Source: Ornithinibacter aureus (GTDB taxonomy: Bacteria; Actinomycetota; Actinomycetes; Actinomycetales; Dermatophilaceae). From it: 64,000 nt of DNA. Location: the NCBI RefSeq assembly GCF_009858245.1, contig NZ_VMSB01000001.1, forward strand, positions 1,798,001 to 1,862,000, read 5' to 3'. Of the stretch, positions 5,776 to 38,480 are shown in pieces (position 1 is the first letter of the stretch; each line of letters begins with the position of its first letter). The position numbers were made by a program, and so were the translations under genes. Under the pieces are notes generated by a model. The model did no database searches. It worked only from the letters and a program-made list of their open reading frames with translations, and was not told where the DNA came from.

Positions 5776-5810
5776 CGTACCTGCACCGACCAATAGGTCA
5801 CTCGGGGTAC
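5776..5810. repeat. Dispersed palindromic repeat, copy 1
   Basis: A 35-bp element with outer arms CGTACC and GGTAC and core GACCAATAGGTC (5788-5799). The core is itself a dyad of GACC and GGTC around four bases. It lies between nuoA and the IS110 element. Confidence 0.85.
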
Positions 5811-5830
5811 ACCACCGACCACCCGGCGCC

Positions 5831-5845
5831 CGTACCTGCACTGAC
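5831..5845. repeat. Dispersed palindromic repeat, copy 2, left half (split by IS110)
   Basis: The half-element CGTACCTGCACTGAC stops exactly where the IS110 element starts. Its other half is at 7175-7194. Joined, they give a 35-bp repeat unit with core GACCTATTGGTC, the same as the other copies. Confidence 0.8.
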
Positions 5846-6104
5846 TGTGAGGATCGACAGCGCAGCCTGATCGTGCTGGGCTGTGGTCGACTGCTTCGGG
5901 TGTGACTCTTGGCCTGACTGGCTTTGTGCCTTTGACCGGACTTGTCCGCTCGGGGTGGTCGGCCCCGGCCCGGTCGGAGTTTGACTGGCCTGATCAGGAG
6001 CTTGACCGCCGGCGTTCGCAGCGTCGGCGTGTCCCGTCACAGTCCTGCCGTGACTCCTCCCGGACCGGACCCTTCGTCCGCTCCAGAGCATCGGGAGGAA
6101 CGCA
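5846..6104 (+). ncRNA. Probable bridge-RNA region of the IS110 element
   Basis: Elements of the IS110 subgroup are known to transcribe a structured bridge RNA from the long noncoding end upstream of the recombinase; two loops of this RNA pair with target and donor DNA. Here the left noncoding end is about 260 bp and no protein is credible in it. I infer the RNA from this layout alone. I have not derived its fold or its guide loops, though the known target (dyad GACCTATTGGTC) gives a sequence the target loop should match. Confidence 0.5.
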
Positions 6105-7157
6105 ATGAACAGTTTGTCCGAGATCGTCGAGGTCGTCATCGGCGTCGACACCCACGTCGAGACCCACACCGCCGCGGTCGTCGACGCCAGAACTGGTGCG
6201 GTGCTCGATGAGCTGACCGTGCACACCACCCCGCAGGGTTACCAGGACCTGGTCGACCTCGCTGACGCGCACAGCGCGTTGCGGGTATGGGCCATCGAGG
6301 GCACCGGTGGTCACGGCGCCGGCCTGGTCCGACACCTGGGCCGCGCCGAGGAAGTGGTCGTCGAGCTGGACCGGCCCGAACGCACCAAGCGGCGCCACGG
6401 TGCCAAGTCCGACCTGTTGGACGCGGTCCGCGCCGCCCGCGAGGCGCTGGCCCGCCCGAAGCTGGGTACCCCGCGCGCTGGTGGGGACCGTCAGGCACTG
6501 TCGGTGCTGCTGGCCGCCCGCCGCTCCGCCGTGGACGCCTCCACTGTGGCGCAACGGCAGCTGTTCTCGTTGGTCATCGCCGCCCCCGAGCACCTGCGTA
6601 CCAAGCTGCGCGGGCGCAAGCTGCCCGAGATGGTGCGGGTCGCCGCTCGGCTGCGCATCCAGAGCAACTGGGACCGCGAGTCCGCCGCGACCGCGACCAC
6701 GCTGCGGACCCTGGCCCGACGCACCCAGGCCCTGACCATCGAGGCCGCCGACCTGGAGAAGCAGATCCTGGCCATCGTCCGCTCCTGGCGCCCGGACTTG
6801 CTCGACCAGCCCGGTATCGGCCCGATCGTCGCCGCGACAGTGCTGTGCGCGTGGTCCCACCCTGGGCGGATCCACACCGAGGCCGGATTCGCGATGCTCG
6901 CCGGCGTCGCCCCGATCCCCGCCAACAGCGGTCAGGTCACCACCCGGTACCGGCTCAACCGCCACGGTGACCGCCAGCTCAACCGGGCGCTGCACACCAT
7001 CGTGCTGGTCCGCCAGCGCTACCACGAACCCACCAAGGCCTACACCGACCGGCGCACCACACAGGGCAAGACCCCACGCGAGATCCGCCGCTGCCTCAAG
7101 CGCTACATCGCCCGCGACCTCTACCGAATCCTCGAACATCACCCATCAACGGCTTGA
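6105..7157 (+). CDS. IS110-family transposase (DEDD recombinase with Tnp-type Ser domain)
   Basis: 350 residues, a normal length for the family. The N-terminal RuvC-like DEDD domain begins EVVIGVDTHVETHTAAVVD and contains WAIEGTGGHGAG, and RHGAKSDLLDAVRAA gives the later acidic residues. The C-terminal domain has PGIGPIVAATVLCAWSHPGR, then FAMLAGVAPIPANSGQ, with the Ser of the second catalytic site within that region, and RLNRHGDRQLNRALHTIV. The gene looks intact. Start ATG at 6105 has GGAGGA shortly before it. Confidence 0.93.
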   Translation: MNSLSEIVEVVIGVDTHVETHTAAVVDARTGAVLDELTVHTTPQGYQDLVDLADAHSALRVWAIEGTGGHGAGLVRHLGRAEEVVVELDRPERTKRRHGAKSDLLDAVRAAREALARPKLGTPRAGGDRQALSVLLAARRSAVDASTVAQRQLFSLVIAAPEHLRTKLRGRKLPEMVRVAARLRIQSNWDRESAATATTLRTLARRTQALTIEAADLEKQILAIVRSWRPDLLDQPGIGPIVAATVLCAWSHPGRIHTEAGFAMLAGVAPIPANSGQVTTRYRLNRHGDRQLNRALHTIVLVRQRYHEPTKAYTDRRTTQGKTPREIRRCLKRYIARDLYRILEHHPSTA

Positions 7158-7174
7158 CAACCCATAGGAGCGTC

Positions 7175-7194
7175 CTATTGGTCGCCCGGGGTAC
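7175..7194. repeat. Dispersed palindromic repeat, copy 2, right half
   Basis: CTATTGGTCG followed by a GGGGTAC end, the missing half of the copy interrupted at 5845. Confidence 0.8.
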
Positions 7195-7326
7195 GTCTGA
7201 CCGACACCTCGTGGACAGCGGTGAGGCTACCCTCATCGCGACGTACCATGGAGAACGCTGCGCCCGCGGCAGAACCGGCGGCACAGCACGTGAGTTTCCG
7301 TCGCCGACTTGACCACAGGGTGCCCC

Positions 7327-9192
7327 GTGAGCAGCAAGACCGTCCAGACGCTCGACCGCGTCGTCATCCGCTTCGCCGGGGACTCCGGCGACGGCATGCA
7401 GCTGACCGGCGACCGGTTCACCAGCGACACCGCTGCCCTGGGCAACGACCTGTCGACGCTGCCCAACTTCCCGGCCGAGATCCGCGCCCCCCAGGGCACG
7501 CTGCCCGGCGTCTCCAGCTTCCAGCTGCACTTCGCCGACCACGACGTGCTCACCCCCGGTGACGCCCCCGACGTACTCGTCGCGATGAACCCGGCAGCCC
7601 TCAAGGCCAACCTCGGCGACCTGCCCCGCGGGGCGACGATCATCGTCAACACCGACGAGTTCACCAAGCGCAACCTCGCCAAGGTCGGCTACGCCGACAA
7701 CCCCGTCGACGACGGCACCCTCGACTCCTTCCACGTGCACGCCGTGGCCCTCACGAGCATCACCGTGGAAGCCCTGGCCGAGTTCCCGACGCTCACCCGC
7801 AAGGAGAAGGAGCGCGCGAAGAACATGTTCGCGCTCGGCCTGCTCTCGTGGATGTACACCCGCCCGACCACCGGCACCGAGGCCTTCCTCAAGAGCAAGT
7901 TCGGCGCGCGCCCCGAGATCCTCGCGGCGAACCTCGCTGCGCTCACCGCCGGCTGGAACTACGGCGAGACCACCGAGGACTTCGCCTCCTCCTTCATCGT
8001 GCCCGCCGCGACGATGCCCGTCGGCACCTACCGCAACATCACCGGCAACACCGCCCTCTCCCTGGGCCTGGTCGCCGCTGCGCACCGCGCCGGCATCCCC
8101 TTGGTGCTCGGCTCCTACCCCATCACCCCGGCATCCGACATCCTCCACGCGCTCGCCTCGCTCAAGCGCCACGGCGTCACGACGATGCAGGCCGAGGACG
8201 AGATCGCCGGCATCGGCATCGCCCTCGGGGCCAGCTTTGGTGGCGCCATCGGCGTCACGACGACGTCGGGGCCGGGGGTGGCGCTGAAGTCCGAGGCGAT
8301 CGGCCTGGCCGTCTCCCTCGAGCTGCCGCTCATCATCGTCGACGTGCAGCGCGGCGGCCCGTCCACCGGCCTGCCGACCAAGACCGAACAGGCCGACCTG
8401 CTGCAGGCGATGTTCGGCCGCAACGGCGAGTCCCCGGTGCCGATCGTCGCGCCGAAGACCCCGGCCGACTGCTTCACCGCCGCGATGGATGCCGTGCGCA
8501 TCGCGACGACGTACCGCACCCCCGTGTTCCTGCTGTCCGACGGCTACCTCGCCAACGGCTCCGAGCCGTGGTCGGTGCCGGAGGTCGACTCCCTGCCCGA
8601 CCTCACCGTCGAGTTCGCGAGCGAGCCCAACGGGGTCGACCCGAAGGGCGAGCCCACGTTCCACCCGTTCCTGCGCGACGAGGAGACGCTGGCCCGGCCA
8701 TGGGCCGTGCCCGGCACAGCGGGTCTGGAGCACCGGATCGGCGGCATCGAGAAGGCCGACGTCACCGGCAACATCTCCTACGACCCCGACAACCACGACC
8801 TGATGACCCGGCTGCGTCAGGCCAAGATCGACGGCATCACCGTGCCCGATCTCGTCATCGACGACCCGAGCGGCCACGCCCGCGTGCTCGTGCTGGGCTG
8901 GGGGTCGACCTTCGGCCCGATCGCGGCCGCGACCCGGGTCGTCCGCAACGCCGGGCACCCGGTGGCGCAGGCCCACCTGACCCACCTCAACCCCTTCCCC
9001 GCGAACCTGGGCGAGGTGCTGACGTCGTACGACCGGGTCATCGTCCCCGAGATGAACCTCGGCCAGCTCTCGATGCTGCTGCGCGCGAAGTACCTCGTCG
9101 ACATCCGCTCGCACACCTCGGTACGCGGGCTGCCCTTCTCCACCGTCGAACTCGCCGACGTCATCTCCACCACCCTCGAGGAGCTCTCGTGA
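7327..9192 (+). CDS. korA: 2-oxoglutarate:ferredoxin oxidoreductase, subunit alpha (gamma-alpha fusion)
   Basis: Large subunit of the KOR enzyme that oxidatively decarboxylates 2-oxoglutarate to succinyl-CoA while reducing ferredoxin. About 621 residues. The N-terminal gamma domain (RFAGDSGDGMQLTGDRF, about residues 14-190) is fused to the alpha domain, where GSYPITPASDILH and TTTSGPGVALKSEAIGLAV are conserved. I chose the GTG at 7327 (VSSKTVQTLDRVV); a TTG at 7309 would add six residues. The stop overlaps the korB start. An actinobacterial KorAB pair of this type is well described in Mycobacterium. Its upstream region is shared with an IS110 element, so expression may be altered. Confidence 0.95.
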   Translation: MSSKTVQTLDRVVIRFAGDSGDGMQLTGDRFTSDTAALGNDLSTLPNFPAEIRAPQGTLPGVSSFQLHFADHDVLTPGDAPDVLVAMNPAALKANLGDLPRGATIIVNTDEFTKRNLAKVGYADNPVDDGTLDSFHVHAVALTSITVEALAEFPTLTRKEKERAKNMFALGLLSWMYTRPTTGTEAFLKSKFGARPEILAANLAALTAGWNYGETTEDFASSFIVPAATMPVGTYRNITGNTALSLGLVAAAHRAGIPLVLGSYPITPASDILHALASLKRHGVTTMQAEDEIAGIGIALGASFGGAIGVTTTSGPGVALKSEAIGLAVSLELPLIIVDVQRGGPSTGLPTKTEQADLLQAMFGRNGESPVPIVAPKTPADCFTAAMDAVRIATTYRTPVFLLSDGYLANGSEPWSVPEVDSLPDLTVEFASEPNGVDPKGEPTFHPFLRDEETLARPWAVPGTAGLEHRIGGIEKADVTGNISYDPDNHDLMTRLRQAKIDGITVPDLVIDDPSGHARVLVLGWGSTFGPIAAATRVVRNAGHPVAQAHLTHLNPFPANLGEVLTSYDRVIVPEMNLGQLSMLLRAKYLVDIRSHTSVRGLPFSTVELADVISTTLEELS

Positions 9193-10295
9193 GCACCCCC
9201 ACGACCACAGACCTCGGGATGCCGGTCAGCGGCCTTCGCTCGGTGCCCCACCTCCCGGACGACGCCGGGAAGCAGACCAAGCGCGACTTCACGTCCGACC
9301 AGGAGGTGCGCTGGTGCCCCGGGTGCGGTGACTACGTGATCCTCGCCGCGGTGCAGTCCTTCCTGCCCGAGCTGGGACTGAAGCGCGAGAACATCGTCTT
9401 CGTCTCCGGCATCGGCTGCTCGAGCCGCTTCCCGTACTACCTCGACACCTACGGCATGCACTCGATCCACGGGCGTGCCCCGGCGATCGCCACGGGCCTG
9501 GCCACGAGCCGTGAGGACCTGTCGGTGTGGGTCGTCACCGGCGACGGCGACGCCCTGTCGATCGGCGGAAACCACCTCATCCACGCGCTGCGCCGCAACG
9601 TCAACATGACGATCCTGCTGTTCAACAACCAGATCTACGGCCTGACCAAGGGGCAGTACTCCCCCACGTCGAAGGTCGGTCAGGTCACGAAGTCCAGCCC
9701 GGTCGGGTCGGTCGACAGCCCGTTCAACCCGGTGTCGCTGGCGCTCGGCGCCGAGGCGACGTTCGTCGCGCGGGCGATGGAATCCGACCGCGCCGAGCTC
9801 ACCGGCATCCTCAAGGCGGCCGCCGAGCACCGAGGCACCGCCCTGGTCGAGATCTACCAGAACTGCCCGATCTTCAACGACGGCGCCTTCGAGGTGCTCA
9901 AGGACCGCACCCAGCAGGAGGCCCGCATCGTGCGGCTGCGCGCCGGCGAGGCCGTCACCGTCGGTGCGGAGGGTGAGCGCAAGGTGCTGGTCCGGCAGGG
10001 CTCGGGCGTCATGAAGTTCATCGCCGAGGCTGAAGCCGCGTCCGGCGAGAAGGGTGCCGTCGTGGTGCACGACCCGGCGCTCGACGACCCGTCGCAGGCC
10101 TTCCAGCTCTCCCGGCTGGACTCCCCCGAGATGACGCACGTGCCCATGGGCATCTTCCGCCAGGTCGACCGGCCCACCTACGACGACCTCGTGCGGGCCC
10201 AGGTCGACGCGGCGGTCAGCACCGCTGGGGGCCCCGCCACCGACGCCGACCTCACCGACCTGCTGCGCGGACGCGACACCTGGACCGTGGGGTGA
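9189..10295 (+). CDS. korB: 2-oxoglutarate:ferredoxin oxidoreductase, subunit beta (TPP-binding)
   Basis: Thiamine-diphosphate and iron-sulphur subunit of KOR, 368 residues. The motif RWCPGCGDYVIL provides two Cys, GIGCSSRFPYYL a third and YQNCPIFND the fourth, matching the 4Fe-4S ligands of the family. The TPP/Mg motif is VTGDGDALSIGGNHLIHALR with FNNQIYGLTKGQ after it. The GTG start overlaps the korA stop, and the stop overlaps the rarD start. The enzyme can act as an alternative to 2-oxoglutarate dehydrogenase in the citric acid cycle and provides reduced ferredoxin. Confidence 0.95.
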   Translation: MSTPTTTDLGMPVSGLRSVPHLPDDAGKQTKRDFTSDQEVRWCPGCGDYVILAAVQSFLPELGLKRENIVFVSGIGCSSRFPYYLDTYGMHSIHGRAPAIATGLATSREDLSVWVVTGDGDALSIGGNHLIHALRRNVNMTILLFNNQIYGLTKGQYSPTSKVGQVTKSSPVGSVDSPFNPVSLALGAEATFVARAMESDRAELTGILKAAAEHRGTALVEIYQNCPIFNDGAFEVLKDRTQQEARIVRLRAGEAVTVGAEGERKVLVRQGSGVMKFIAEAEAASGEKGAVVVHDPALDDPSQAFQLSRLDSPEMTHVPMGIFRQVDRPTYDDLVRAQVDAAVSTAGGPATDADLTDLLRGRDTWTVG

Positions 10296-11266
10296 CCCCG
10301 CCTCCGTCGGGCGCGGCCCCGACGGGAGGTGGGGAGGCCGAGCTACGACGTGGCACGGCATACGCCTTCCTCGCCTACGGCATCTGGGGGATGTTCCCCC
10401 TGTACTTCGCGGCCCTCGAACCCTCCGGGGCCTGGGAGATCCTGGCCCACCGCATCCTGTGGACGTTGGCCGTCGTCGCCCTCGTGCTGCTCGTGCGTCG
10501 CGACCTCTGGTGGATCCGGCCGTTCCTGTCGCGACCGCGTCTCGTCGCCGGCATCACGCTGGCGGCCCTGCTCATCGCCGCCAACTGGATCATCTACGTG
10601 CTCGCCGTGCTCACCGGTCGCACGTACGAGGCTGCCCTCGGCTACTTCCTCAACCCCATCGTCACCGTCGGCCTCGGCGTGCTCGTGCTCGGGGAACGGC
10701 TCAGGCGCCTGCAGTGGGCAGCGGTGGCCGTGGGCGCGGTGGCAGCGGTCTACCTCACGGTGGCCGGCGGCGTGCTTCCGTGGATCAGCCTCAGCCTGGC
10801 GTTCACGTTCGGTCTCTACGGGCTGGTGAAGAAGCGGGTCGGTGCGAGCCTGGAGGCGCTGCACTCGTTGGCCGCGGAGACCGCGGTGCTCGCGCCGGTG
10901 GCCGTCGGCGTCATCGTCGTGCTGTCGGTGCAGGGTGCGACGACCTTCGCCGGGCACGGCGTCGTACACACGACGCTGCTCGTGCTCGCCGGGGTGGTCA
11001 CCGCCGTGCCGTTGCTGCTGTTCGCCGCGGCTGCCCGGCGGATCCCCCTGGTCACCGTCGGCCTGATCCAGTTCATCACCCCGATGCTCCAGCTGCTCGT
11101 CGGGGTGACCCTGCTCGGTGAGCACGTGAGCGGCCGCCTGTGGTTCGGGTTCGGGATCGTCTGGGTGGCGCTGGCCCTGCTGAGCGTCGACTCGCTGCGC
11201 GCGGCCAGGACGGCCCGGGCGGACCGGCGGGCACTGCCCGAGGACCCGCCGGAGCCGTGCCCCTGA
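10292..11266 (+). CDS. rarD: RarD-like EamA-family transporter
   Basis: 324-residue integral membrane protein of the drug/metabolite transporter superfamily with ten hydrophobic segments. Signature stretches are YGIWGMFPLYFAAL, ILAHRILWTL and ANWIIYVLAVLTGRTYEAALGYFLNP, typical of the RarD branch. The substrate is unknown; the Escherichia coli name comes from a chloramphenicol-sensitivity phenotype. The GTG start overlaps the korB stop, so it is translated with korAB, although a functional link is not obvious. Confidence 0.9.
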   Translation: MTPPPSGAAPTGGGEAELRRGTAYAFLAYGIWGMFPLYFAALEPSGAWEILAHRILWTLAVVALVLLVRRDLWWIRPFLSRPRLVAGITLAALLIAANWIIYVLAVLTGRTYEAALGYFLNPIVTVGLGVLVLGERLRRLQWAAVAVGAVAAVYLTVAGGVLPWISLSLAFTFGLYGLVKKRVGASLEALHSLAAETAVLAPVAVGVIVVLSVQGATTFAGHGVVHTTLLVLAGVVTAVPLLLFAAAARRIPLVTVGLIQFITPMLQLLVGVTLLGEHVSGRLWFGFGIVWVALALLSVDSLRAARTARADRRALPEDPPEPCP

Positions 11267-11342
11267 CGGCTCCTCGGGCGTCGAAGCACTCCCCCGACGG
11301 CTCGGCGTCGAAGCACTCCCCCTGACAAGCCCTCGCTCAACC

Positions 11343-11390
11343 GGACAAGCCTTGTCCAGCAGAGTCGGGACTTATCGGGTGACCCGATAA
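11343..11390. repeat. Two short perfect palindromes at the break of the DUF2804 remnant
   Basis: GGACAAGCCTTGTCC (11343-11357) and TTATCGGGTGACCCGATAA (11372-11390). Just before them lie two copies of GGCGTCGAAGCACTCCCCC-type sequence (from about 11278 and 11305). They lie where the DUF2804 similarity ends and could mark a recombination or insertion scar. They could also act as a terminator for rarD. Confidence 0.5.
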
Positions 11391-11394
11391 AGCC

Positions 11395-11616
11395 GGCGTA
11401 GTCCAGTGACGAGACGGTGACGCCGACGAGGTGGGTCGGGGTCGTGACCGCCCAGTACTCCCACCGTTTCGTGCGGCCCCACCCCCGCCGGCCGCGGCCG
11501 ATCCGGCTCGTGTCGTGGAGCGGATGCCGGGTCCAGCCGACCGCGTCCGGGTTCAGGGTGCCGTCGGGTCGGCAGAGCTCGACCTCGGCCGTGATCTCGC
11601 GTTCGGTGACCCGCAC
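11395..11616 (-). pseudogene. DUF2804-like gene fragment, 3' truncated
   Basis: From the GTG at 11616 about 70 residues resemble the N-terminal part of DUF2804 proteins (normally about 330 residues): a CRPDGTLNPDAVGWTRHPLH stretch, then KRWEYWAVTTPTHLVGV and VSSLDYAG. After that the frame runs into palindromic intergenic DNA and then antisense through rarD, with no similarity. The gene is therefore cut short. Its start lies just downstream of the FAD-linked oxidase stop, so it was once cotranscribed with it. Confidence 0.7.
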
Positions 11617-11622
11617 GGCGGC

Positions 11623-12924
11623 TCAGTCCCCGAGGAGGTGGCGGACGTGGGCGTTGGTGAATCGCCGCCCGGGATCGAGGCGGTCACGGACCGCTCGGAA
11701 GTCGTCGAACCGCGGGTAGAGCTCGCGCAGCCGGTCGGCCCGCAGGGTGTGCACCTTGCCCCAGTGCGGCCGCCCTGCGTGCTCGGCCACGATCGCCTCG
11801 AAGGCCTCGAACAGCGGCCGCGGGTCCATCCGGTGGTACTGGTGCACGGCGACGTAGGCGTTCTCCCGTTCGTACGCGGTCGACAGCCACACGTCATCGG
11901 CCCCGATGAAGCGCACCTCCACCGGGAACGGCACGGGCGCGCGGGTGCGGTCGAACCACGCCCGAAGTTCCGCGAGCACCGCCTCGACCGCGTGGCGCGG
12001 CACGGCGTACTCGCTCTCGACGAAGCGCACCTTGCGCGAGGAGCAGAACACCTTCCAGGAGTCGTCGGCGAACTCGCGCGCCCCGAGCACGCGCGCCGTG
12101 GCCCGGTTGACCACCGGCACGGATGCCGGGAGCGCTGCGGCCCCGCGGTTGATCACCTCGAACACCCGGTTCGCGAGGAGGTCGTCATCGAGCCGAGCCC
12201 GCCACGGGGCGAGCGGCGGCGGGCCCTGCCGCGGGCCGACGACGTCGTTGCGCTTGACGAGCACGCGGTCGGTGTGGGGGAACCAGTGCAGGTCGAGGTG
12301 GTCGTGGGTGTCGGCCTCGGTCTGGACGCGGGGCAGCAGGTCGCTCAGCGCCTCGCTGCACTCCTTGGCGTGCAACCGGTAGGCGGGCACGCACGCGAGT
12401 TCGACCTCGGTGACGACCCCGAGGGCGCCCAGCCCGACGGCCGCGGCGGCGAGCACCTCTTGCTCGCGCTCGGTCGAGCACTCCAGCGTGCTGCCGTCGG
12501 CCAGCACGAGGGTCAGGCCGGTCACCGCCGCCGCGATGCCCTGTCGGCGGGTGCCGGTGCCATGGGTTCCGGTGGCGATGGCTCCGGAGATGGTCTGCCG
12601 GTCGATGTCGCCGAGGTTCGGCAGGGCCAGCCCAAGCCGCTGCAGCGCCGGGTTGAGCACGTGCAACGGTGTTCCGGCCAGCACCCTGACCCGGTTGCGC
12701 TCCCGGTCGACGCCGACCACCCCGCTCAGGCCGTCGACGTGCAGCAGCATCCCGTCGGTCGCGACCAGCGGGGTGAAGGAGTGCCCGGACCCGGCCACGC
12801 GCACACCGAGCCCGGCACGCGCAGCGGCGCGAACGGCATCCGCGACTGCCTCGGCGCTGGTGGCATGACGAACCTGCACAGGGGACGCCACGACGTTGCC
12901 GCCCCAGTTGCGCCAGCTGGTCAT
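11623..12924 (-). CDS. FAD-linked sugar-1,4-lactone oxidase (D-arabinono-/L-gulono-lactone oxidase type)
   Basis: 433-residue VAO-family flavoprotein. The N-terminal FAD-binding PCMH domain has VRVAGSGHSFTPLVATDG; in related enzymes the His after SG can carry FAD covalently. It continues with LPNLGDIDRQTISGAIATGT and HGTGTRRQGIAAAV. The C-terminal ALO domain ends with AGRPHWGKVHTL, the HWGK motif of aldonolactone oxidases. It would oxidise an aldonolactone, but the substrate cannot be told from sequence. Its ATG overlaps the stop of the upstream racemase-fold gene, and the broken DUF2804 gene follows. Confidence 0.88.
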   Translation of the reverse strand: MTSWRNWGGNVVASPVQVRHATSAEAVADAVRAAARAGLGVRVAGSGHSFTPLVATDGMLLHVDGLSGVVGVDRERNRVRVLAGTPLHVLNPALQRLGLALPNLGDIDRQTISGAIATGTHGTGTRRQGIAAAVTGLTLVLADGSTLECSTEREQEVLAAAAVGLGALGVVTEVELACVPAYRLHAKECSEALSDLLPRVQTEADTHDHLDLHWFPHTDRVLVKRNDVVGPRQGPPPLAPWRARLDDDLLANRVFEVINRGAAALPASVPVVNRATARVLGAREFADDSWKVFCSSRKVRFVESEYAVPRHAVEAVLAELRAWFDRTRAPVPFPVEVRFIGADDVWLSTAYERENAYVAVHQYHRMDPRPLFEAFEAIVAEHAGRPHWGKVHTLRADRLRELYPRFDDFRAVRDRLDPGRRFTNAHVRHLLGD

Positions 12925-14066: not shown

Positions 14067-14181
14067 CCCCCGACCCTACTGAACGCGACGTCGGGCCCGT
14101 CGGCGGTTGGGGCACCACTGCCGCCGTCGAAGCGCCGGACACACCGCGCCCGCCCCGCCGGCCCGGTGGCAGACTGCGTCG

Positions 14182-15474
14182 GTGACCGAGGACGTCGAGA
14201 CCTACGTGGGGGACCCGCCCCGCACGCGCTGGCACCGCGCATGGGCTGTGGCTGGCGTGACGCTCGCGGCCCTCGTCGCAGCCGCCGCGTTCCGGTCCTC
14301 GACCGGGGTGCTCCTCGAACCCATCGAGCGGGAGTTCGGCTGGTCGCGGGCCACGACGTCCGGCGCGGTCAGCCTCAACCTCGTGCTCTACGGCATCAGT
14401 GCACCCTTCGCCGCCGCCGCGATGGAGCGGTGGGGGGTGCGGCGAACGGTGACCACGGCGCTGGTCGTCGTCGGGGTCGCGAGCGGGCTCACGACGGTGA
14501 TGACCGCGCCGTGGCAGCTGTGGGTGCTGTGGGGCGTGTTCATCGGCGTCGGCACCGGGGCCATGGCGCTGGTGTTCGGTGCGATCGTCGCGAACCGCTG
14601 GTTCCACACGCAGCGCGGCCTGGTCACCGGGGTGTTCTCGGCGGCCAGCGCGACGGGCCAGCTGATCTTCCTGCCCGTCATCGCGCGCACCGCGTCGGAT
14701 GCCGGGTGGCGGGCCGCCGCCCTCATCGTCAGCGCCCTGGCCCTCCTCACCGCGGTGCTCGTCGTGGCCTTCCTGCGCGACCGACCCGGCGACGTCGGGG
14801 TGCTGCCCTACGGGCTGCCACCCGGGTCGATGGTTGATGCGCCGACGGCACCGACCGCCTCACCCGCGGTCGTCGCCCTGCGCGTGCTGCGGTTCGCGAG
14901 CCGCACCTGGGTGTTCTGGGCACTGGCCCTGACGTTCTGGATCTGTGGCTGGTCGACCAACGGCATCATCCAGACCCACTTCATCCCCGCGGCCCACGAT
15001 CACGGGATGCCGTCCACCACCGCCGCGGGCCTGCTCGCCCTGGTGGGGGTGTTCGACATCGTCGGCACGATCGCGTCGGGCTGGCTGACCGACCGGGTCG
15101 ACCCCCGGTGGCTGCTCGCCGGCTACTACTTCGGGCGCGCGCTGTCGCTGTTGGCGCTGGATGCCGTGCTGGCCCCCGGGATCGTGCCCGGCATGTGGGT
15201 GTTCATCGTCTTCTACGGCCTGGACTGGGTGGCCACCGTCCCCCCGACCGTGGCCCTGTGCCGAACCCACTTCGGTCTCGAACGCTCGGGAGTGGTGTTC
15301 GGGTGGGTGTTCGCCTCGCACATGATCGGGGCCGGGGTCGGGGCCAGCGTCGCGGGGCTGGTGCGCACCGAGCAGGGTGACTACCACTGGGCGTGGCTCA
15401 TCGCGGCGGCGATGTGCTTCGCCGCGGTGGCGCTGTCGCTGTCGATCCCCCGCCGTCCCCACATCGACCAATAG
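14182..15474 (+). CDS. Major facilitator superfamily transporter
   Basis: 430 residues from GTG 14182 (VTEDVETYVGDPPRTRWHRA), with twelve hydrophobic segments. Loop 2-3 reads AAAMERWGVRRTV in place of the usual G-x-x-x-D-R-x-G, while the second half has SGWLTDRVDPRWL. It looks like an oxalate/formate-antiporter-type MFS protein, but the substrate is unknown. An odd feature is that the stop codon TAG (15472-15474) and the last residues HIDQ come from a copy of the dispersed palindromic repeat, so the C-terminus was probably changed by the repeat. Confidence 0.88.
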   Translation: MTEDVETYVGDPPRTRWHRAWAVAGVTLAALVAAAAFRSSTGVLLEPIEREFGWSRATTSGAVSLNLVLYGISAPFAAAAMERWGVRRTVTTALVVVGVASGLTTVMTAPWQLWVLWGVFIGVGTGAMALVFGAIVANRWFHTQRGLVTGVFSAASATGQLIFLPVIARTASDAGWRAAALIVSALALLTAVLVVAFLRDRPGDVGVLPYGLPPGSMVDAPTAPTASPAVVALRVLRFASRTWVFWALALTFWICGWSTNGIIQTHFIPAAHDHGMPSTTAAGLLALVGVFDIVGTIASGWLTDRVDPRWLLAGYYFGRALSLLALDAVLAPGIVPGMWVFIVFYGLDWVATVPPTVALCRTHFGLERSGVVFGWVFASHMIGAGVGASVAGLVRTEQGDYHWAWLIAAAMCFAAVALSLSIPRRPHIDQ

Positions 15475-15490
15475 GTCACTCCAGGTACGC
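15452..15490. repeat. Dispersed palindromic repeat, copy 3 (gives the MFS stop codon)
   Basis: Core GACCAATAGGTC at 15466-15477, preceded by CGTCCCCACAT and followed by ACTCCAGGTAC. The TAG inside the core ends the MFS gene. Confidence 0.85.
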
Positions 15491-15507
15491 CAGCGACCCA
15501 CCCCAGC

Positions 15508-15542
15508 CGTACCCACAACGACCAATAGGTCACTCCGGGTAC
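15508..15542. repeat. Dispersed palindromic repeat, copy 4
   Basis: CGTACC, core GACCAATAGGTC at 15520-15531, and a closing GGTAC. The spacing is the same as copy 1 (35 bp). Confidence 0.85.
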
Positions 15543-15573
15543 GCCAGAGGCATCCGGCCGATGTCGCTATGGT

Positions 15574-15585
15574 GACCTATTGGTC
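15574..15585. repeat. Dispersed palindromic repeat, copy 5 (core only, opposite orientation)
   Basis: Core GACCTATTGGTC with weak outer arms, lying between the MFS gene and the convergent polyprenyl synthase gene. It faces copy 4, so copies 4 and 5 together could form a larger hairpin. Confidence 0.75.
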
Positions 15586-15615
15586 GATTCCGGGACGGGG
15601 TTGGGGGCCTGCGGG

Positions 15616-21663: not shown

Positions 21664-21672
21664 TGGTGCTCC

Positions 21673-31713: not shown

Positions 31714-32309
31714 GCGAGGAGGTTCTTCCCGCTCGGAGCCGCGAGGTGGGCCAGGTGGTCGTGGGTCGGGGCCATCAGCGACGTCGGGGTCGCGGCGAGG
31801 GCTGCGGCCTCGGCCGCCCGGGCCGCGGCGATGCGGTTGACGCCGAGCTTGCTGCCCTGGATCTGGGCGTGCAGCTCGATGATCGCGTTCAGGAGCATCT
31901 CGGGGCGGGGCGGACACCCGGGCAGGTAGATGTCGACGGGGATGATGTGGTCGACGCCCTGGACGATCGCGTAGTTGTTGAACATGCCGCCCGAGCTGGC
32001 GCACACGCCCATGGAGATGACCCACTTGGGGTTGGGCATCTGGTCGTAGACCTGCCGCACGACGGGAGCCATCTTCTGCGAGACCCGTCCGGCGACGATC
32101 ATGAGGTCGGCCTGACGGGGGGTGGCGGAGAACCGCTCCATGCCGAACCGGGCGATGTCGTAGTCAGGGGTGCCGACGGCCATCATCTCGATGGCGCAGC
32201 AGGCCAGACCGAACGTCGCAGGCCAGATCGAGGCCTTGCGCATGTAGCCGACGACGTTCTCGAGCGTGGTCAGCACGAAGCCGGCGGGCAGCTTCTCCTC
32301 GAGTCCCAT
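31710..32309 (-). CDS. nuoB: NADH-quinone oxidoreductase subunit B
   Basis: 199 residues with the N2 cluster ligands in [21 protein letters not shown] and LPGCPPRPE. It starts at [13 protein letters not shown] with AAGGAGG in front. The upstream stretch is occupied by a 25-codon open frame, whose stop shares a base with this start. Confidence 0.97.
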
Positions 32310-32386
32310 CAGCCCTCCTTGGGGTGAGCGGTCGGTGAGGTGGGGTGCACGAACAGGGGTGCGGACGGCATCCGGGCGGTGGTCAT
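32309..32386 (-). CDS. Possible 25-codon linker ORF between nuoA and nuoB
   Basis: The frame begins with an ATG that shares a base with the nuoA stop (TGATG) and ends in a TGA that shares a base with the nuoB ATG (TGATG). The peptide starts [13 protein letters not shown] and ends HPKEG, and the codons for KEG contain the nuoB ribosome-binding site. It has no hydrophobic helix or known motif. It may simply carry ribosomes from nuoA to nuoB, or be a chance frame; the double TGATG junction is the main argument for translation. Confidence 0.4.
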
Positions 32387-32748
32387 CAGTCCCACTCCAA
32401 CCCGCCGCGCTTCCACACGTACGCGTAGGCGACGAAGACGGTGAGGATGAACAGCACCATCTCGACCAGCGCGAACAGGCCGAGGGAGTCGAAGGCGACC
32501 GCGAACGGGTACAGGAAGATCGACTCGATGTCGAAGATGATGAAGAGCATCGCCGTGAGGAAGTACTTGACCGGCACGCGGCCACCACCGGCGGCGCGCG
32601 GCGTGGGCTGGATGCCGCACTCGTAGGCCTCCAGCTTGGCGCGGTTGTAGCGCTTGGGGCCGACGACGAGGCTGGTGCCCACGGAGAGCGCGGCGAAGCC
32701 GAAGCCCAGCGCGAGCAGGATGAAAATCGGTGCGTAGGGGTTGCTCAT
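32386..32748 (-). CDS. nuoA: NADH-quinone oxidoreductase subunit A
   Basis: 120 residues, three helices. [20 protein letters not shown] and [18 protein letters not shown] are the conserved loops, the second holding the family's acidic residues. It starts at MSNPYAPIF. It is the first gene of the fourteen-subunit operon; a Rex-type operator lies about 180 bp upstream. Confidence 0.96.
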
Positions 32749-32929
32749 CGAGGTGACAACTCCCCTTTCGGTGCTCAGGTACATCGGGCTGGCACGGCCG
32801 AACAACAGTCAGCGTCCCGGCCATCCTAGGGGGAGTGACCTACGCCTCACCCGACGACGCTCGACAGTCGGCCCGGACGCATGCTGTGCATGCACTTTCC
32901 GGACCGGCGGGCGAACGCCGTGAGGGTGC

Positions 32930-32947
32930 TTGTGAATCTCTTCACGA
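32930..32947. promoter_or_regulatory. Probable Rex operator upstream of nuoA
   Basis: TTGTGAATCTCTTCACGA matches the Rex consensus TTGTGA-N6-TCACAA with one mismatch in the last three bases. Rex is an NADH/NAD-sensing repressor known to control nuo operons in actinobacteria such as Streptomyces. The site is about 180 bp before the nuoA start, in a noncoding gap (32749-33008) next to menG, whose 3' end faces it. It would tie complex I expression to the cell's redox state. Confidence 0.6.
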
Positions 32948-33008
32948 TCGGCCGCAGTCTAGGACGGGCCGCCGGCGGGGTTGCACTAAGGCAGCCCTAA
33001 CCTGCCGC

Positions 33009-33707
33009 TCAGGCGGTCGGCTTCGTCGCCCGGTGGAGGGCGACGATGCCGCCGGAGAGGTTGCGCCACTGGACCTCGCCCCAGCCTGCCCCGGACACCC
33101 GCTGCGCCAGGCCGCGCTGCGCCGGCCAGGCCTGGATGGACTCCGCGAGGTACACGTAGGACTCGGGGTTGCTGCTGACCTTGCGTGCCACCGCGGGCAG
33201 CGACCGCATGAGGTAGTTCGAGTACACCGTGCGGAAGGCCTTGTGCGTCGGCTGGCTGAACTCGCAGATGACGAGCCGACCACCCGGCTTGGTGACGCGC
33301 AGGAACTCGCGCAGCGCGGCATCCGGGTCGGCGACGTTGCGCAGCCCGAAGCTCATCGTCACGACGTCGAAGGACTCGTCGGCGAAGGGCAGGTTCATCG
33401 CGTCGGCAGCGGTGAACCCGAGGTCCGAGCGGCGCTGGTGGCCCACGCGCAGCATCCCCAGCGAGAAGTCGGCGGGCACGACGTCGACCCCGGAGTCGGC
33501 GAACGGCTCGCTGCTCGTGCCCGTCCCGGCGGCGATGTCGAGCACGACCTGCCCGGGAACGGCCTCGCAGGCCGCGACCACCGCACGGCGCCAGAGCCGG
33601 TCCTGGCCCAGCGAGAGCACGTCGTTGGTCACGTCGTACTTGCTCGCGACGTCGTCGAACATCGCGGCGACGTCGCGGGGGTCCTTGTCGAGGGAGGCGC
33701 GGCTCAT
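33009..33707 (-). CDS. menG: Demethylmenaquinone methyltransferase
   Basis: 232-residue SAM-dependent methyltransferase (UbiE/MenG family) that makes the last step to menaquinone. [19 protein letters not shown] is SAM motif [21 protein letters not shown] and [13 protein letters not shown] are family motifs, and the N-terminus has [18 protein letters not shown] choose the ATG at 33707 (MSRASLDKD) because GGAGG lies nine bases before it; an ATG nine bases upstream has no room for a ribosome-binding site. Divergent from menF across a tandem-repeat region. Confidence 0.95.
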
Positions 33708-33734
33708 GCGCGCCATCCTCCCACCCGTGCACCC

Positions 33735-33893
33735 GCGTCCCCACATCGACCAATAGGTCACCGCAGGTACACCCCACCCACGCCCCCGCGTCCCCACATC
33801 GACCAATAGGTCACCGCAGGTACACCCCACCCACGCCCCCGCGTCCCCACATCGACCAATAGGTCACCGCGGGTACACCCCACCCGCGGCGTG
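33735..33893. repeat. 53-bp tandem repeat, three units, each with the palindromic core (copies 6-8)
   Basis: The units start at 33735, 33788 and 33841, with cores GACCAATAGGTC at 33748, 33801 and 33854. Units 1 and 2 are nearly identical and unit 3 differs at a few bases. They fill almost the whole space between the divergent menG and menF genes and so must carry or flank both promoters. No CRISPR-like spacers separate them. Confidence 0.9.
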
Positions 33894-33924
33894 CACCCGC
33901 ACCGGGGACGTATCCTGCTGCGCG

Positions 33925-35343
33925 ATGACCTCGCTGCCCGCGGGTGACCGACCGAGCGACCCCGTCGCCTCCGCCGCGCCCCTCGTCTCGCGCACCGTGC
34001 CCCTGCCCCTCGAGCTCGGCACGGCGCTGCTCGCACTGCTGCCCGTCCGCGGCGCTCGCGACCTGTGCTCGTGGGTGCGACGCGGCGAGGGTGTGATCGG
34101 GTGGGGTCGCGCGGCCAGCCACACGGCATCCGGCCCGGACCGGATGGCCGAACTCGACCACTGGTGGTCCGCCCTCATGGCGCACGCCGTCGTCCGCGAC
34201 GAGGTGCGGCGCCCGGGCACGGGTCCGATCGCGTTCGGCTCCATCTCGTATGCCGCGTCCTCGCCCATCGGAGCGACGCTCGTCGTCCCCGAGGTCGTCG
34301 TCGGCGTCCGCGGCGGAGTCGCCTGGCTGACGACCGTCGCGCTGGATGCCACCCCTGCCGTCCCGGGTGCTGTCGAGGTGATCCGTCAACCGGCCCCTCA
34401 AAGCCCGACCGACGTCGCCTTCGCCGACGGCTCGCTCTCCCCCGCCGACTGGGCCGGCGCCGTCGCGGATGCCGTGCAGCGCATCACCGACGGTGACCTC
34501 GACAAGGTGGTGCTCGCCCGCGACCTCGAGGTGTCCACCACCGGAGAGCTCGACGTGCGCTGGCTGCTGCACCGCCTCGCCGAGCGCTACGACACCACGT
34601 GGGTGTTCGCCGTCGACGGCCTCGTCGGGGCCACCCCTGAACTGCTCGTGCGCCGCGAGAAGGGCCTGGTCACCTCCCGAGTGCTCGCGGGCACGATCCG
34701 ACGCACCGGTGACGACGACCACGACCTGGCGCTCGCGGCATCCCTGGCCCGCTCCAGCAAGGACCTCGAGGAGCACGAGTACGCCGTGCGCTCGGTGGCC
34801 GACGCCCTCGCACCGCACTGTTCGTCGATGAACGTGCCCGAGGTGCCGTTCGTGCTGCACCTGTCCAATGTCATGCACCTGGCCACCGACGTCGCCGGGG
34901 TCCTCGTCGACGACGCATCGGCGCTGGCGCTCGCAGCCTCACTGCACCCCTCGGCCGCCGTGTGCGGCACCCCCACCCCCGTCGCGGATGCCGTCATCGC
35001 CGAACTCGAGCACATGGACCGCGGCCGCTACGCCGGGCCCGTGGGGTGGATCGACGCGTCCGGCGACGGCGAGTTCGGGATCGCCCTTCGGTGCGGGGAG
35101 GTCTCGACGACCGATCCTTCCCGGATGCGGCTGTTCGCCGGGTGCGGCATCGTCGCCGGGTCGGTGCCTGATGACGAGGTCGCGGAGTCGTCGGCCAAGC
35201 TCGTACCGATGCGCGACGCGCTCACGGCATCCGGGCCCGCCTGCCCTTCCCCGAACGTGGGTGAAGATCGTCGGCTGGACGACGATCTTCACCCACGTTC
35301 GCGGGATGGCTCGCGAGGTGAAGCGCCGGGCCGGGTCAGCTGA
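33925..35343 (+). CDS. menF: Isochorismate synthase
   Basis: 472-residue chorismate-utilising enzyme that converts chorismate to isochorismate, the first step to menaquinone. The C-terminal catalytic domain shows VLAGTIRRTG, SSKDLEEHEYAVRSVADAL, LHLSNVMHLATDV, LHPSAAVCGTP and RYAGPVGWIDASGDGEFGIA. The DKVVLARD stretch carries the Lys that activates water in isochorismate synthases. The last 45 codons contain a perfect 22-bp inverted repeat, and the gene overlaps the convergent reductase gene by eight bases. The conserved domain ends before the hairpin. Confidence 0.92.
   Translation: MTSLPAGDRPSDPVASAAPLVSRTVPLPLELGTALLALLPVRGARDLCSWVRRGEGVIGWGRAASHTASGPDRMAELDHWWSALMAHAVVRDEVRRPGTGPIAFGSISYAASSPIGATLVVPEVVVGVRGGVAWLTTVALDATPAVPGAVEVIRQPAPQSPTDVAFADGSLSPADWAGAVADAVQRITDGDLDKVVLARDLEVSTTGELDVRWLLHRLAERYDTTWVFAVDGLVGATPELLVRREKGLVTSRVLAGTIRRTGDDDHDLALAASLARSSKDLEEHEYAVRSVADALAPHCSSMNVPEVPFVLHLSNVMHLATDVAGVLVDDASALALAASLHPSAAVCGTPTPVADAVIAELEHMDRGRYAGPVGWIDASGDGEFGIALRCGEVSTTDPSRMRLFAGCGIVAGSVPDDEVAESSAKLVPMRDALTASGPACPSPNVGEDRRLDDDLHPRSRDGSRGEAPGRVS
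35252..35301. terminator. Perfect 22-bp hairpin between convergent menF and reductase genes
   Basis: Arms at 35252-35273 and 35280-35301 are perfect complements around a six-base loop. There is no long T run, so it is not a classic intrinsic terminator, but it sits exactly where two convergent transcripts meet. It lies within the extreme 3' end of menF. Confidence 0.65.
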
Positions 35344-36568
35344 ACGGCGGGCGGGCGTCGACCGCCACGGACCGACGACCGGCCCAGCGCCACACCCGCG
35401 CGGAGCGGTCGCGGTCCTCCTCGGTGATGAGATTGCCCATCCAGCGCAGCGCGAGCGTCATGAGCCAGTCGCTGCGCATCCCGACCGGGCCGAGCGCGCT
35501 GAGGATCTTCGGGGTGGTGAACACCCCAGCGAGGCGGCGGGCGATCGAGAACGCCTCGCCGTAGTTCTCCTGGAGCAGTGCGGGCCAGACCACCGACAGG
35601 TCGTCGTCGAGGTGGTCGACGAGCAGCCGTCCGGTCTCGAGGCCGTAGTCGATGCCTTCGCCGTTGAGCGGGTTGATGCACGCGGCGGCGTCGCCGATGA
35701 GGGCCCAGTTGGCGCCTGCAACGTTGCTGACGGCACCGCCCATGGGCAGCAGGGCGCTCGTGGGCATGCGCTGCTCGCCGGTGAGCTCGAAGTCGTCGCG
35801 GCGAAGGTCGGTGTAGTGCTTCATCAGCGGCTTGATCGCGACGTCCGCCGGGCGCTTGGTCGTCGCGAGGGTGCCGACGCCGACATTCACCTGGCCGCCA
35901 CCGAGCGGGAAGATCCAGCCGTACCCGGGCAGGGTCTCACCGGACTCGGACCGCAGTTCGAGGTGGCTGCTGATCCACGGGTCGTCTGCGCGGGCCGAGT
36001 CGACGTAGCAGCGACCCGCCACGGCGTACACGGTGTCCTTGTGCCACTCACGGCCGAGCACCTTGCCGAGGCCCGAGCGCACCCCATCCGCGACGACGAG
36101 CCGCTCGCACTCGATGTCGAAGGTCTCGTCGCCGCGCGTGAAGGTGACGGACTTGACCCGCCCACCCTCGACGCGGGCGTCGACGGCCTTGGCCCCCTCG
36201 ACGCCGGTGGCCCCCGAGGTGATCGCCTCAGTGCGGATGCGGTCGTCGAGTTCGGTGCGCGGCACGGCCGACCCGTGGTCGGGCAGTGAACCGCCGGGCC
36301 AACGCAGGTGCAGGGTCTGCCCGAAGCCGTGCGCGCGCAGGCCCTGGTTGACGGCGTGCTCACGAACCCACTGCCCCAGGCCGAGGCGGTCGAGCTCGGC
36401 GATGGCGCGAGGGGTCAGCCCGTCGCCGCAGGTCTTGTCGCGGGGAAAGACGGCCGCGTCGGCCAGGACGACGTCGCGGCCGGCACGCGCAGCCCACGCT
36501 GCCGCGGACGATCCGGCCGGCCCGGCGCCGACGACGAGGACATCCGTGCGCTGCGGGGTCTGTGACAC
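35336..36568 (-). CDS. Geranylgeranyl reductase-family flavoprotein (menaquinone-tail reductase type)
   Basis: 410-residue FAD-dependent oxidoreductase. The Rossmann motif is DVLVVGAGPAGSSAAAWAAR, and FPRDKTCGDGLTPRAIAEL is the family's Cys-containing signature; NWALIGDAAACINPLNGEGI is the second FAD motif. In mycobacteria the related MenJ saturates one isoprene unit of the menaquinone tail. The location among men genes supports that role but it is inference. Start GTG at 36568. Confidence 0.87.
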   Translation of the reverse strand: MSQTPQRTDVLVVGAGPAGSSAAAWAARAGRDVVLADAAVFPRDKTCGDGLTPRAIAELDRLGLGQWVREHAVNQGLRAHGFGQTLHLRWPGGSLPDHGSAVPRTELDDRIRTEAITSGATGVEGAKAVDARVEGGRVKSVTFTRGDETFDIECERLVVADGVRSGLGKVLGREWHKDTVYAVAGRCYVDSARADDPWISSHLELRSESGETLPGYGWIFPLGGGQVNVGVGTLATTKRPADVAIKPLMKHYTDLRRDDFELTGEQRMPTSALLPMGGAVSNVAGANWALIGDAAACINPLNGEGIDYGLETGRLLVDHLDDDLSVVWPALLQENYGEAFSIARRLAGVFTTPKILSALGPVGMRSDWLMTLALRWMGNLITEEDRDRSARVWRWAGRRSVAVDARPPFS

Positions 36569-36668
36569 CCCGCCATTGTCGCAAGGTGAGGGCGCGCGCC
36601 CGAAATCGCCCCCCGGCATCCCTAGACCACAGCGACTCATTGCACTCCCGCCACCGCCCCCCTCCCCG

Positions 36669-36737
36669 ACTTCGTGCGACTTAGGTGCGGCGAAACGCCC
36701 GAGCCAGCCTCCGGGCCGCACGGAAGTCGCACGAAGT
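36669..36737. terminator. Long hairpin downstream of menD
   Basis: Outer arms ACTTCGTGCGACTT (36669-36682) and its complement (36724-36737), with inner arms GTGCGGC and GCCGCAC (36685-36691, 36715-36721). It begins seven bases after the menD stop, read on the minus strand. It is probably a transcription terminator or an RNA-stability element. Confidence 0.6.
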
Positions 36738-36743
36738 GGTGGG

Positions 36744-38480
36744 CTACAGGGAGGCGAGGGTGGCGGCGGCGAGGGCTCGCAGGTCGGCAAGGGCCTGCCG
36801 GTGCGTGCTGCGGCCAACACGCACCTCGACGACGCGGATGCCGTGTTGTGGCTCGGCGACCGCGTCCGTCAGGGCTTCGCTCGATTCCACGAGGTCGTAC
36901 CGGATGCCGTGTGCTCGGCAGAGCGCTGCCAGGTCGGTTGCGGTGGGGGTACCGAACACCCGCTCGAAGTCTGCCTCCCGCTCGGGTGCCCCGGGCTCGA
37001 GGGTGGCGAAGATGCCGCCGCCGTCGTCGTTGATGACGACAAGGGTGAGGTGGGGGGTCACCTCGTCGGGGCCGATCAGCAGCCCGTTGGTGTCGTGGAG
37101 GAAGGTCAGGTCGCCGAGGAGCGCGAAGGCCGGGGCGGGCGCTCGGGTCAGGGAGATGCCGACCGCCGTGGAGACGACACCGTCGATCCCGGCCAAGCCG
37201 CGGTTGGCCAGCACGTCGTCGGCGATCGGGCCCGCCACGGCGAGGTCGAGGTCGCGGACCGGGTTGCTCGGGCCGAGGACGAGAACGGCGTCATCGGGGA
37301 GGCCGTCGACCACGGCCTTGGCCGCGGCGAGACCGCTCGGCCACGGGAACGGCTGTGCGGCAACGCCATCCGCCAGCTGTTGGGCCGCCGCTCGCCACCT
37401 GGCCCCCCAGCCGCGGTCATCCTCGGGAACGGTCGGCCCGCCGAGGCGCAACGCCAGCGGGGGGTGCACGGCGCAGGCGACGTGCGACGGGTCGGGCCAC
37501 TGGCTGTCCTCGGCCACCACCTCGACCACGAGCCCCGGTCGGCGCAGCAGTGCCCCGACGGCCCGGGACAGGGTCGGGCGCCCGACGACGACGACGCGCT
37601 CCGGGGCGTGGGCGTCGAGCCAGTCGGTGGCGGTGAGGAGCAGCGAACCGTGCGGCAGCGCTTCGGCTCTGAGCGCTGCACTGCCGAAGGGCTCGGCGAC
37701 AAGGGGATGACCGCGCTCGGACGCCCAGGCGGCGGCTCGTTCACCGAGAGCCGGGTCGCGGGTGTCGCCGACGACGACCAGAGTGCGGGCCACCTCCGAC
37801 AGCGCCAGGTCGTTCGTCGGCGGCCGTACCCCGAGTGACCTATTGGTCGATGGGGGTACGGGGGCCTGTACCCACGGGGCGCCGTCGGCCCTGCCGTCGA
37901 GGTCGTCGACCCAGCTGTTGTCGGAGGCAGCGGGTACGAGGGGTTCGCGCAGCGCGACGTTCAGGTGCACCGGGCCGGGCGCCCCACCCGTGGCGCCCGT
38001 GGCGGCCGCGAGTGCCCGGCAGACGGTGCTTCGCCAGAACGGCCCGAGCCCGGGGCGCTCCACCGGAGCCGGCAGGTCGGCGAACCAGCGGGTCGAGCCG
38101 CCGAAGATGCCGGGTTGGGTCGTCGTCTGGTTCGCGCCGGTCCCCCGCAGCTCGTGCGGCCGGTCGGCCGACAGCACCAGCACGGGCACGCCGGCGTGGT
38201 GGGCCTCGAGAACGGCCGGATGGATGTTGGCGACCGCGGTGCCCGAGGTGGTGATGACGGCCACCGGCAGACCCGAGCCGCGGGCCAGACCCAGCGCGAG
38301 GAAGCCGGCGCTGCGCTCGTCGACTCGCACGTGCAGCCGCAGGAGCCCTGCGCGTTCCGCCGCGAGCACGGCGTACGCGAGCGGAGCCGACCGCGAGCCC
38401 GGGCTGAGCACGACGTCGCGCACTCCGCCGCGCACCAGTTCGTCGACGAGCACGGTCGACAGGGCCTGGGACGGGTTCAC
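36744..38480 (-). CDS. menD: 2-succinyl-5-enolpyruvyl-6-hydroxy-3-cyclohexene-1-carboxylate synthase
   Basis: 578-residue TPP enzyme that adds a 2-oxoglutarate-derived unit to isochorismate. The N-terminal domain has DVVLSPGSRSAPLAYAV and VDERSAGFLALGLARGSG with the activating Glu; the C-terminal TPP/Mg motif reads LLGDLTFLHDTNGLL with VINDDGGGIF after it. Residues about 207-219 (PVPPSTNRSLGVR) are encoded by an in-frame copy of the dispersed palindromic repeat, lying between the first and second domains where an insertion is likely tolerated. Start GTG at 38480 (VNPSQALSTVL). Confidence 0.93.
   Translation of the reverse strand: MNPSQALSTVLVDELVRGGVRDVVLSPGSRSAPLAYAVLAAERAGLLRLHVRVDERSAGFLALGLARGSGLPVAVITTSGTAVANIHPAVLEAHHAGVPVLVLSADRPHELRGTGANQTTTQPGIFGGSTRWFADLPAPVERPGLGPFWRSTVCRALAAATGATGGAPGPVHLNVALREPLVPAASDNSWVDDLDGRADGAPWVQAPVPPSTNRSLGVRPPTNDLALSEVARTLVVVGDTRDPALGERAAAWASERGHPLVAEPFGSAALRAEALPHGSLLLTATDWLDAHAPERVVVVGRPTLSRAVGALLRRPGLVVEVVAEDSQWPDPSHVACAVHPPLALRLGGPTVPEDDRGWGARWRAAAQQLADGVAAQPFPWPSGLAAAKAVVDGLPDDAVLVLGPSNPVRDLDLAVAGPIADDVLANRGLAGIDGVVSTAVGISLTRAPAPAFALLGDLTFLHDTNGLLIGPDEVTPHLTLVVINDDGGGIFATLEPGAPEREADFERVFGTPTATDLAALCRAHGIRYDLVESSEALTDAVAEPQHGIRVVEVRVGRSTHRQALADLRALAAATLASL
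37825..37860. repeat. Dispersed palindromic repeat, copy 9, in frame inside menD
   Basis: CGTACC, core GACCTATTGGTC at 37837-37848, and closing GGTACG. It is inside the menD coding sequence and is 36 bp, a multiple of three, so the reading frame is kept. Confidence 0.85.

What the first reader, a model, noticed from the sequence alone, without database searches (positions are those of the whole stretch)
5776..37860. Dispersed palindromic repeat family, nine copies across 32 kb
A 35-bp unit with outer arms CGTACC/GGTACG and core GACCAATAGGTC recurs at 5788, 5843/7175 (split), 15466, 15520, 15574, 33748, 33801, 33854 and 37837 (core positions). Spacing of arms and core is conserved, so each copy can fold into a double-dyad hairpin. 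Copies are in both orientations, mostly between genes. None is seen in the 38-64 kb part. It behaves like a REP- or Rickettsia-type palindromic element, and I know of no name for it.
Basis: seen in the sequence. Interest (0 to 1): 0.75.

Follow-up and report, generated by a model that had tools for sequence, protein, structure and literature searches.

The report
Palindromic repeats paired with a nuclease
This bacterial genome carries over a hundred copies of a short mirror-image DNA repeat, and repeats of the same design border the gene of a predicted DNA-cutting protein at most of the related gene sites examined, so that protein likely spreads the repeats, a job so far credited to an unrelated enzyme family.

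Summary
The repeat is real. The window holds 8 intact 36-bp units plus one split by an IS110-type insertion; the genome holds 104 exact cores, against 0 for the reversed control. It is REP-like, but no RAYT-type transposase was found in the genome.

Arrays in inverted orientation flank one gene 1.5 Mb away. Its product is predicted to join an AbiEi-like half to a Vsr/homing-endonuclease-like half.

The link is general. Repeats shared by the two flanks occur at 64 of 89 homolog loci in the family and 24 of 28 class-wide, against 3 of 199 control genes. Units differ between lineages: one read blind from a gene flank had 70 copies in its genome and none in ten congeners. Spacing (mostly 50-54 bp, else 42-46) and pair orientation (+ then -) recur with units of unrelated sequence.

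Best reading: a REP/REPIN-like system whose cognate enzyme is a predicted homing-type nuclease. Binding, cutting and copying are untested. Ten searches of an open-access library listed no paper on this pairing.

The parts
5776..5811 (+). intact 36-bp unit, first of a pair
   Evidence: orthologous unit in G034
5831..5845 (+). left part of the unit split by the IS110-type element
   Evidence: unit uninterrupted in G034
5846..7174 (+). IS110-type insertion (transposase ORF 6105-7157); ends approximate
   Evidence: Pfam PF02371 and PF01548; second copy elsewhere in the genome
7175..7195 (+). right part of the split unit
15454..15489 (+). unit; the predicted gene 14182-15474 ends inside it (TAG)
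15508..15543 (+). unit, 54 bp from the previous one
15562..15597 (-). unit in inverted orientation, forms a (+,-) pair; right arm degenerate
33736..33771 (+). unit 1 of a tandem array of three, 53-bp period; array absent in G035 and G036
33789..33824 (+). unit 2 of the array
33842..33877 (+). unit 3 of the array
37825..37860 (-). single unit, absent in G035 and G036

Best explanation
The palindromes are dispersed repeats whose copies also flank one gene (G000:C1:3395135-3396064, outside the window), and the product of that gene, a predicted AbiEi-like DNA-binding half joined to a predicted Vsr/homing-endonuclease-like half, likely recognises them and would copy them to new sites by cutting DNA and letting repair fill the gap from a repeat-bearing template. 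Shown by calls: the genome-wide copies, the inverted arrays around the gene, the same layout with other units around homologs across the class, recurring spacing and pair orientation, and the absence of units at two orthologous sites in two relatives. Inferred: that the protein binds the unit (perhaps several protomers on one helix face, hence spacings near 4 and 5 helix turns), that it cuts, and that repair copies units. On this reading the dispersed units are non-autonomous satellites and the gene between its arrays is the source, as REPs are thought to relate to RAYT genes.
Against: No biochemistry. 25 of 89 family loci and 4 of 28 class loci fail the flank test. Of control genes with gaps of 60 bp or more on both sides, 3 of 35 pass, so wide intergenic gaps raise the baseline; a few class hits may be ordinary terminators (L292). 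Genome-wide copies were counted for only five unit families; two are small (G141: 6 copies, 3 of them at the gene; G156: 4 copies, 3 of them at the gene). G307 has a homolog but no copy of the g96 unit. Two further G000 proteins over the MTES_1575 cut-off show no flanking repeat set, only one single unit near one of them, so the domain alone does not predict repeats. Internal pairing of the arms is weak. No clean insertion boundary was found. Related loci share flanks by descent, which can produce part of the Mantel signal. One (-,+) pair exists in G163.
Confidence: 0.6

Rival explanations
1. The palindromes are operators: the AbiEi-like half represses its own gene through the flanking units, and the dispersed copies are a regulon or decoy sites; the nuclease half does something else, such as defence.
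For: The N-terminal half resembles the AbiEi antitoxin, a fold known (recalled) for autoregulation through inverted repeats. Spacing near whole helix turns fits protein binding.
Against: Arrays lie on both sides of the gene, also downstream; 18 of 49 intergenic clusters lie between convergent genes; copy number and presence differ strongly between close relatives, which fits spread better than a regulon.
Confidence: 0.17
2. The repeats are transcription terminators or mRNA-stabilising hairpins that multiplied by ordinary duplication, and the nuclease gene merely tolerates or hitch-hikes with them.
For: Convergent-gene enrichment; some flank hits look like terminators (L292); 3 of 35 control genes with wide gaps also pass.
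Against: Units of unrelated sequence share spacing and orientation and track the nuclease; many G000 units fold poorly alone; 64 of 89 against 3 of 199.
Confidence: 0.1
3. A classical REP family moved by a RAYT now lost, or by an IS element such as the IS110-type one in the window.
For: REP-like form; an IS110-type element sits in one unit, and ISPpu9 of Pseudomonas putida sits in REPs (PMC8450116, start of abstract in a listing only).
Against: No PF01797 match in the genome. The second IS110-type copy is not in a unit; both copies share ACTGAC at the left junction. Neither explains the nuclease link.
Confidence: 0.05

Closest known systems
REP / REPIN with RAYT transposase (REPtron)
   Same: Short palindromes in high copy, mostly extragenic, inverted doublets, arrays flanking one gene whose relatives elsewhere carry other palindromes (PMC3733652 abstract and passages; PMC3116915 abstract).
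   Different: The flanked gene is a predicted AbiEi-Vsr nuclease, not a Y1 (HUH) transposase; PF01797 has no match in the genome; no GTAG tag; spacing near 42 and 52 bp recurs across unrelated units.
CGTC-tagged REPs (including Rickettsia RPE)
   Same: Palindromes; the abstract states that they apparently lack a dedicated transposase (PMC3733652); some units here begin CGTCCC.
   Different: There CGTC is an unpaired tag and stems are 8-9 bp; here the CGT(A/C)CC arm faces a complementary GGTACG arm and the core is central.
EDxHD homing endonuclease I-Bth0305I and Vsr
   Different: Not in an intron; joined to an AbiEi-like half; tied to multicopy palindromes.
AbiEi antitoxin
   Different: Joined to a predicted nuclease half; no partner toxin gene was sought.
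MTES_1575_REase domain (Pfam PF18741)
   Same: Domain assignment of the protein, just under the curated cut-off; 112 of the 120 listed homologs carry it. Described as a Vsr-fold REase in multi-domain HEPN proteins (PMC3710099 passages).
   Different: No repeat association is mentioned in the passages read.

Membership tests
REP/RAYT (REPtron) | short palindrome in high copy, mostly extragenic | tested here: met
   104 cores; 49 of 59 clusters intergenic
REP/RAYT (REPtron) | cognate Y1/HUH tyrosine transposase gene | tested here: not met
   PF01797: no match in G000; it rings in 5 of 14 control genomes
REP/RAYT (REPtron) | GTAG (or CGTC) unpaired tag at one end | tested here: not met
   no GTAG at unit ends in the 100 units read; CGTCCC arms are common but face a complementary arm
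REPIN | inverted doublets able to form a long hairpin | tested here: met
   (+,-) pairs 17 of 17 in G000; one doublet (window 15508-15597) folds at z -3.6
CRISPR array | same-strand repeats with unique spacers | tested here: not met
   both orientations; spacers of the 33.7 kb array are near-identical
EDxHD/Vsr-type nuclease | Vsr-like fold | tested here: met
EDxHD/Vsr-type nuclease | acidic and histidine active-site residues | tested here: inconclusive
   E187, E231, D233, H237, D246 invariant in 62 of 62; not superposed on a known active site
EDxHD/Vsr-type nuclease | DNA cleavage | not testable with these tools
   needs protein
AbiEi antitoxin | AbiEi fold | tested here: met
AbiEi antitoxin | partner AbiEii toxin gene beside it | not tested
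   neighbouring ORFs were read by eye only
Rfam RNA family | match over gathering score | tested here: not met
   0 matches in the window

The most novel reading that the evidence does not exclude
Actinomycetes carry a second, independent kind of REP system: palindromic satellites copied by a homing-type AbiEi-Vsr nuclease through cut-and-repair instead of by a single-strand HUH transposase, each nuclease with its own palindrome and with an array geometry set by the protein.
Probability: 0.5. Interest if true: 0.92.

Novelty: new variant of a known kind. Interest (0 to 1): 0.85.

Why it matters
Dispersed palindromes without a known mover have long been catalogued; CGTC REPs are said to lack a dedicated transposase (PMC3733652). 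A predicted nuclease gene that sits between arrays of its own palindrome gives a concrete, testable mover, offers a function for a large family so far labelled DUF559 or MTES_1575, and supplies many natural enzyme-site pairs from which recognition rules could be learned.

Tried and rejected
RAYT as mover: no PF01797 match. Known RNA family: no Rfam match in the window. IS110 as mover: the second copy is not in a unit. CRISPR-like array: both orientations, near-identical spacers. Units selected to supply stop codons: the GAC-CAA-TAG frame is open for 50 codons in 51 of 100 units against 42 and 43 in the other two frames, no clear excess, although single predicted genes do end inside a unit. Strong covariation inside the unit: most positions between arm and core pair at shuffle level. 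Phage or plasmid carriage: one weak phage match and six plasmid-collection matches, all under 60% identity. Other MTES_1575 domains of G000 (L260, L261, L263): no flanking repeat set; one single unit lies near L260. Clean insertion boundaries: not found. The first flank count, 66 of 89, used wrong gene positions for L123 and L128, which are cut by contig ends; at the right positions both miss, so the count is 64 of 89. The Mantel test kept those two wrong positions; the period count given here leaves both out.

Full report
OBSERVATION. The unit is 36 bp: CGTACC-N6-GACCAATAGGTC-N6-GGTACG. The split copy is a unit broken by an IS110-type element (Pfam Transposase_20 and DEDD_Tnp_IS110); the relative G034 carries the orthologous unit whole. 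In the genome (3.70 Mb, one contig) the exact core occurs 104 times, 64 forward and 40 reverse, against 0 for the pattern read backwards. I read 100 of the 104 in context.

ANATOMY. The 100 units fall in 59 clusters: 26 single, 25 double, 8 triple. Of 24 same-direction neighbours, 21 lie 51-54 bp apart; the 17 inverted neighbours lie 42-45 or 52-54 bp apart and all 17 are (+,-), none (-,+). By a home-made gene caller, 49 of 59 clusters are intergenic (18 convergent, 21 tandem, 10 divergent) and 10 fall inside predicted genes; neighbouring gene pairs in the window are 7 convergent, 43 tandem and 7 divergent. Single units often fold poorly: of five window units folded as DNA, three form an outer stem. 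Arm complementarity is slightly above shuffles (5.10 against 4.78 of 7 pairs, p 0.0002), while most positions between arm and core pair at shuffle level. At window 33.7 kb the array is absent in G035 and G036, and G034 has one diverged unit; at 37.8 kb the unit is absent in G035 and G036, and G034 has a hairpin with other arms. These are presence/absence differences; the boundaries are not clean.

DISTRIBUTION. The exact core occurs in 20 of 186 genomes of the family, in five of them ten times or more: G000 104, G154 97, G163 69, G034 24, G076 10. A scan of named genomes gave 8 stretches: six of one Dermatophilaceae MAG, one of Phycicoccus endophyticus and one of a Chloroflexi MAG. Contigs of G034 match that first MAG in length, so the window very likely lies in Dermatophilaceae; the genome itself is unnamed.

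GENERALITY. Close orthologs in genomes that lack this core also had repeats beside the gene, with other sequences: GTGCATCAATCGTCGAAAGTGTCGATTGATGCAC-like units in G156, G157 and G160, and GTCGCTATCTCATGCAAAAGGCGAGTTAGCGCC in G140. I then scored the best local alignment between the left and right 600-bp flanks, inverted or direct, with threshold 20. Family homologs: 90 loci fetched, one dropped (contig end), 64 of 89 pass after correction of two mis-set loci. Controls from 20 stretches of 20 kb in the same genomes: 33 of 900 random windows; 3 of 199 gene-centred windows, all 3 among the 35 genes with gaps of 60 bp or more on both sides; window genes 0 of 37. Class-wide: 29 loci, one skipped, 24 of 28 pass; two of the passing loci belong to the family (one already counted), leaving 22 of 26 outside it. 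A few may be ordinary terminators (L292).

PREDICTIONS TESTED. Units read from gene flanks were sought genome-wide. G140's unit: 70 copies in G140, 0 in ten congeners, 0 reversed, with (+,-) in 15 of 15 inverted pairs at 42-43 bp and direct spacings of 42, 43 and 52 bp plus a few at 36, 50 and 63. The G156/G157/G160 unit: 4, 13 and 13 copies, 0 in the nine other genomes of the genus; three of G156's four lie at the gene. G141's unit: 6 copies, three at the gene, 0 in ten congeners. The g96 unit: 1 to 83 copies in 10 of 11 genomes, 0 in G307, which has a homolog, and 0 in two genomes of other genera; the 25 close pairs typed from part of that list are all (+,-) at 45-46 bp. G163 has one (-,+) pair beside two (+,-). 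In the own genus the two genomes with a close ortholog have the core and the two without (G035 no match, G036 one distant match) have none. Across the homolog loci the dominant array period is 50-54 bp at 38 of the 61 loci that have one (88 usable loci; without the two mis-set loci), against 2 of 17 repeat-bearing control windows. Unit similarity rises with protein similarity over 84 loci (Mantel r 0.30, 0 of 2000 permutations as high); shared descent of the locus could produce part of this.

MECHANISM. The simplest account is a REP-like system: one gene kept between arrays and many dispersed satellites. The protein likely binds the palindrome through its AbiEi-like half; spacings near four and five helix turns suggest protomers on one face, and I-Bth0305I is reported to dimerise on a target of nearly 60 bp (PMC3943268 passages). 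Its Vsr-like half would cut, and repair from a repeat-bearing copy would add units. All three steps are inferred. The operator reading is the main rival.

COMPARISON AND NOVELTY. REPtrons are RAYT genes flanked by REPs (PMC3733652 abstract and passages); REPINs are inverted REP doublets (PMC3116915 abstract). The present system works like them but fails their defining enzyme test. Ten paper searches of an open-access library listed no paper on DUF559 or MTES_1575 genes flanked by palindromic repeats; I judged this from listings and from passages of PMC3710099, and subscription papers could not be searched.

Noticed in passing
window 35216-35310: A second palindrome (CGAACGTGGGTGAAGATCGTC ... 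GACGATCTTCACCCACGTTCG) that matches many other places in G034, so probably another dispersed family.
   Followed up: no
window 36633-36776: A third palindrome (CTTCGTGCGACTT ... AAGTCGCACGAAG), also matching many places in G034.
   Followed up: no
G000 whole genome: Uneven spread: of the 100 units read, 3 lie in the first 1.0 Mb and 86 between 1.75 and 3.5 Mb. Origin and terminus were not located, so a replichore effect is untested.
   Followed up: partly
window 5846-7174 and G000:C1:2042206-2043541: Two copies of an IS110-type element, 100% identical over the 1336 bp matched, share ACTGAC at the left junction; only one sits in a repeat unit.
   Followed up: partly
L092-L094 (G076): G076 carries the same 12-bp core with quite different arms, while the unit beside its own nuclease gene has core GTCCAATAGGAC.
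   Followed up: no
L081:265-290: A contig of a MAG labelled uncultured Chloroflexi holds one canonical unit: mis-binning or transfer, not examined.
   Followed up: no
L102-L110: CCAATA-like cores recur in units of several diverged nuclease clades (G076, G166, G164, G028), as if part of the recognised motif were kept.
   Followed up: partly
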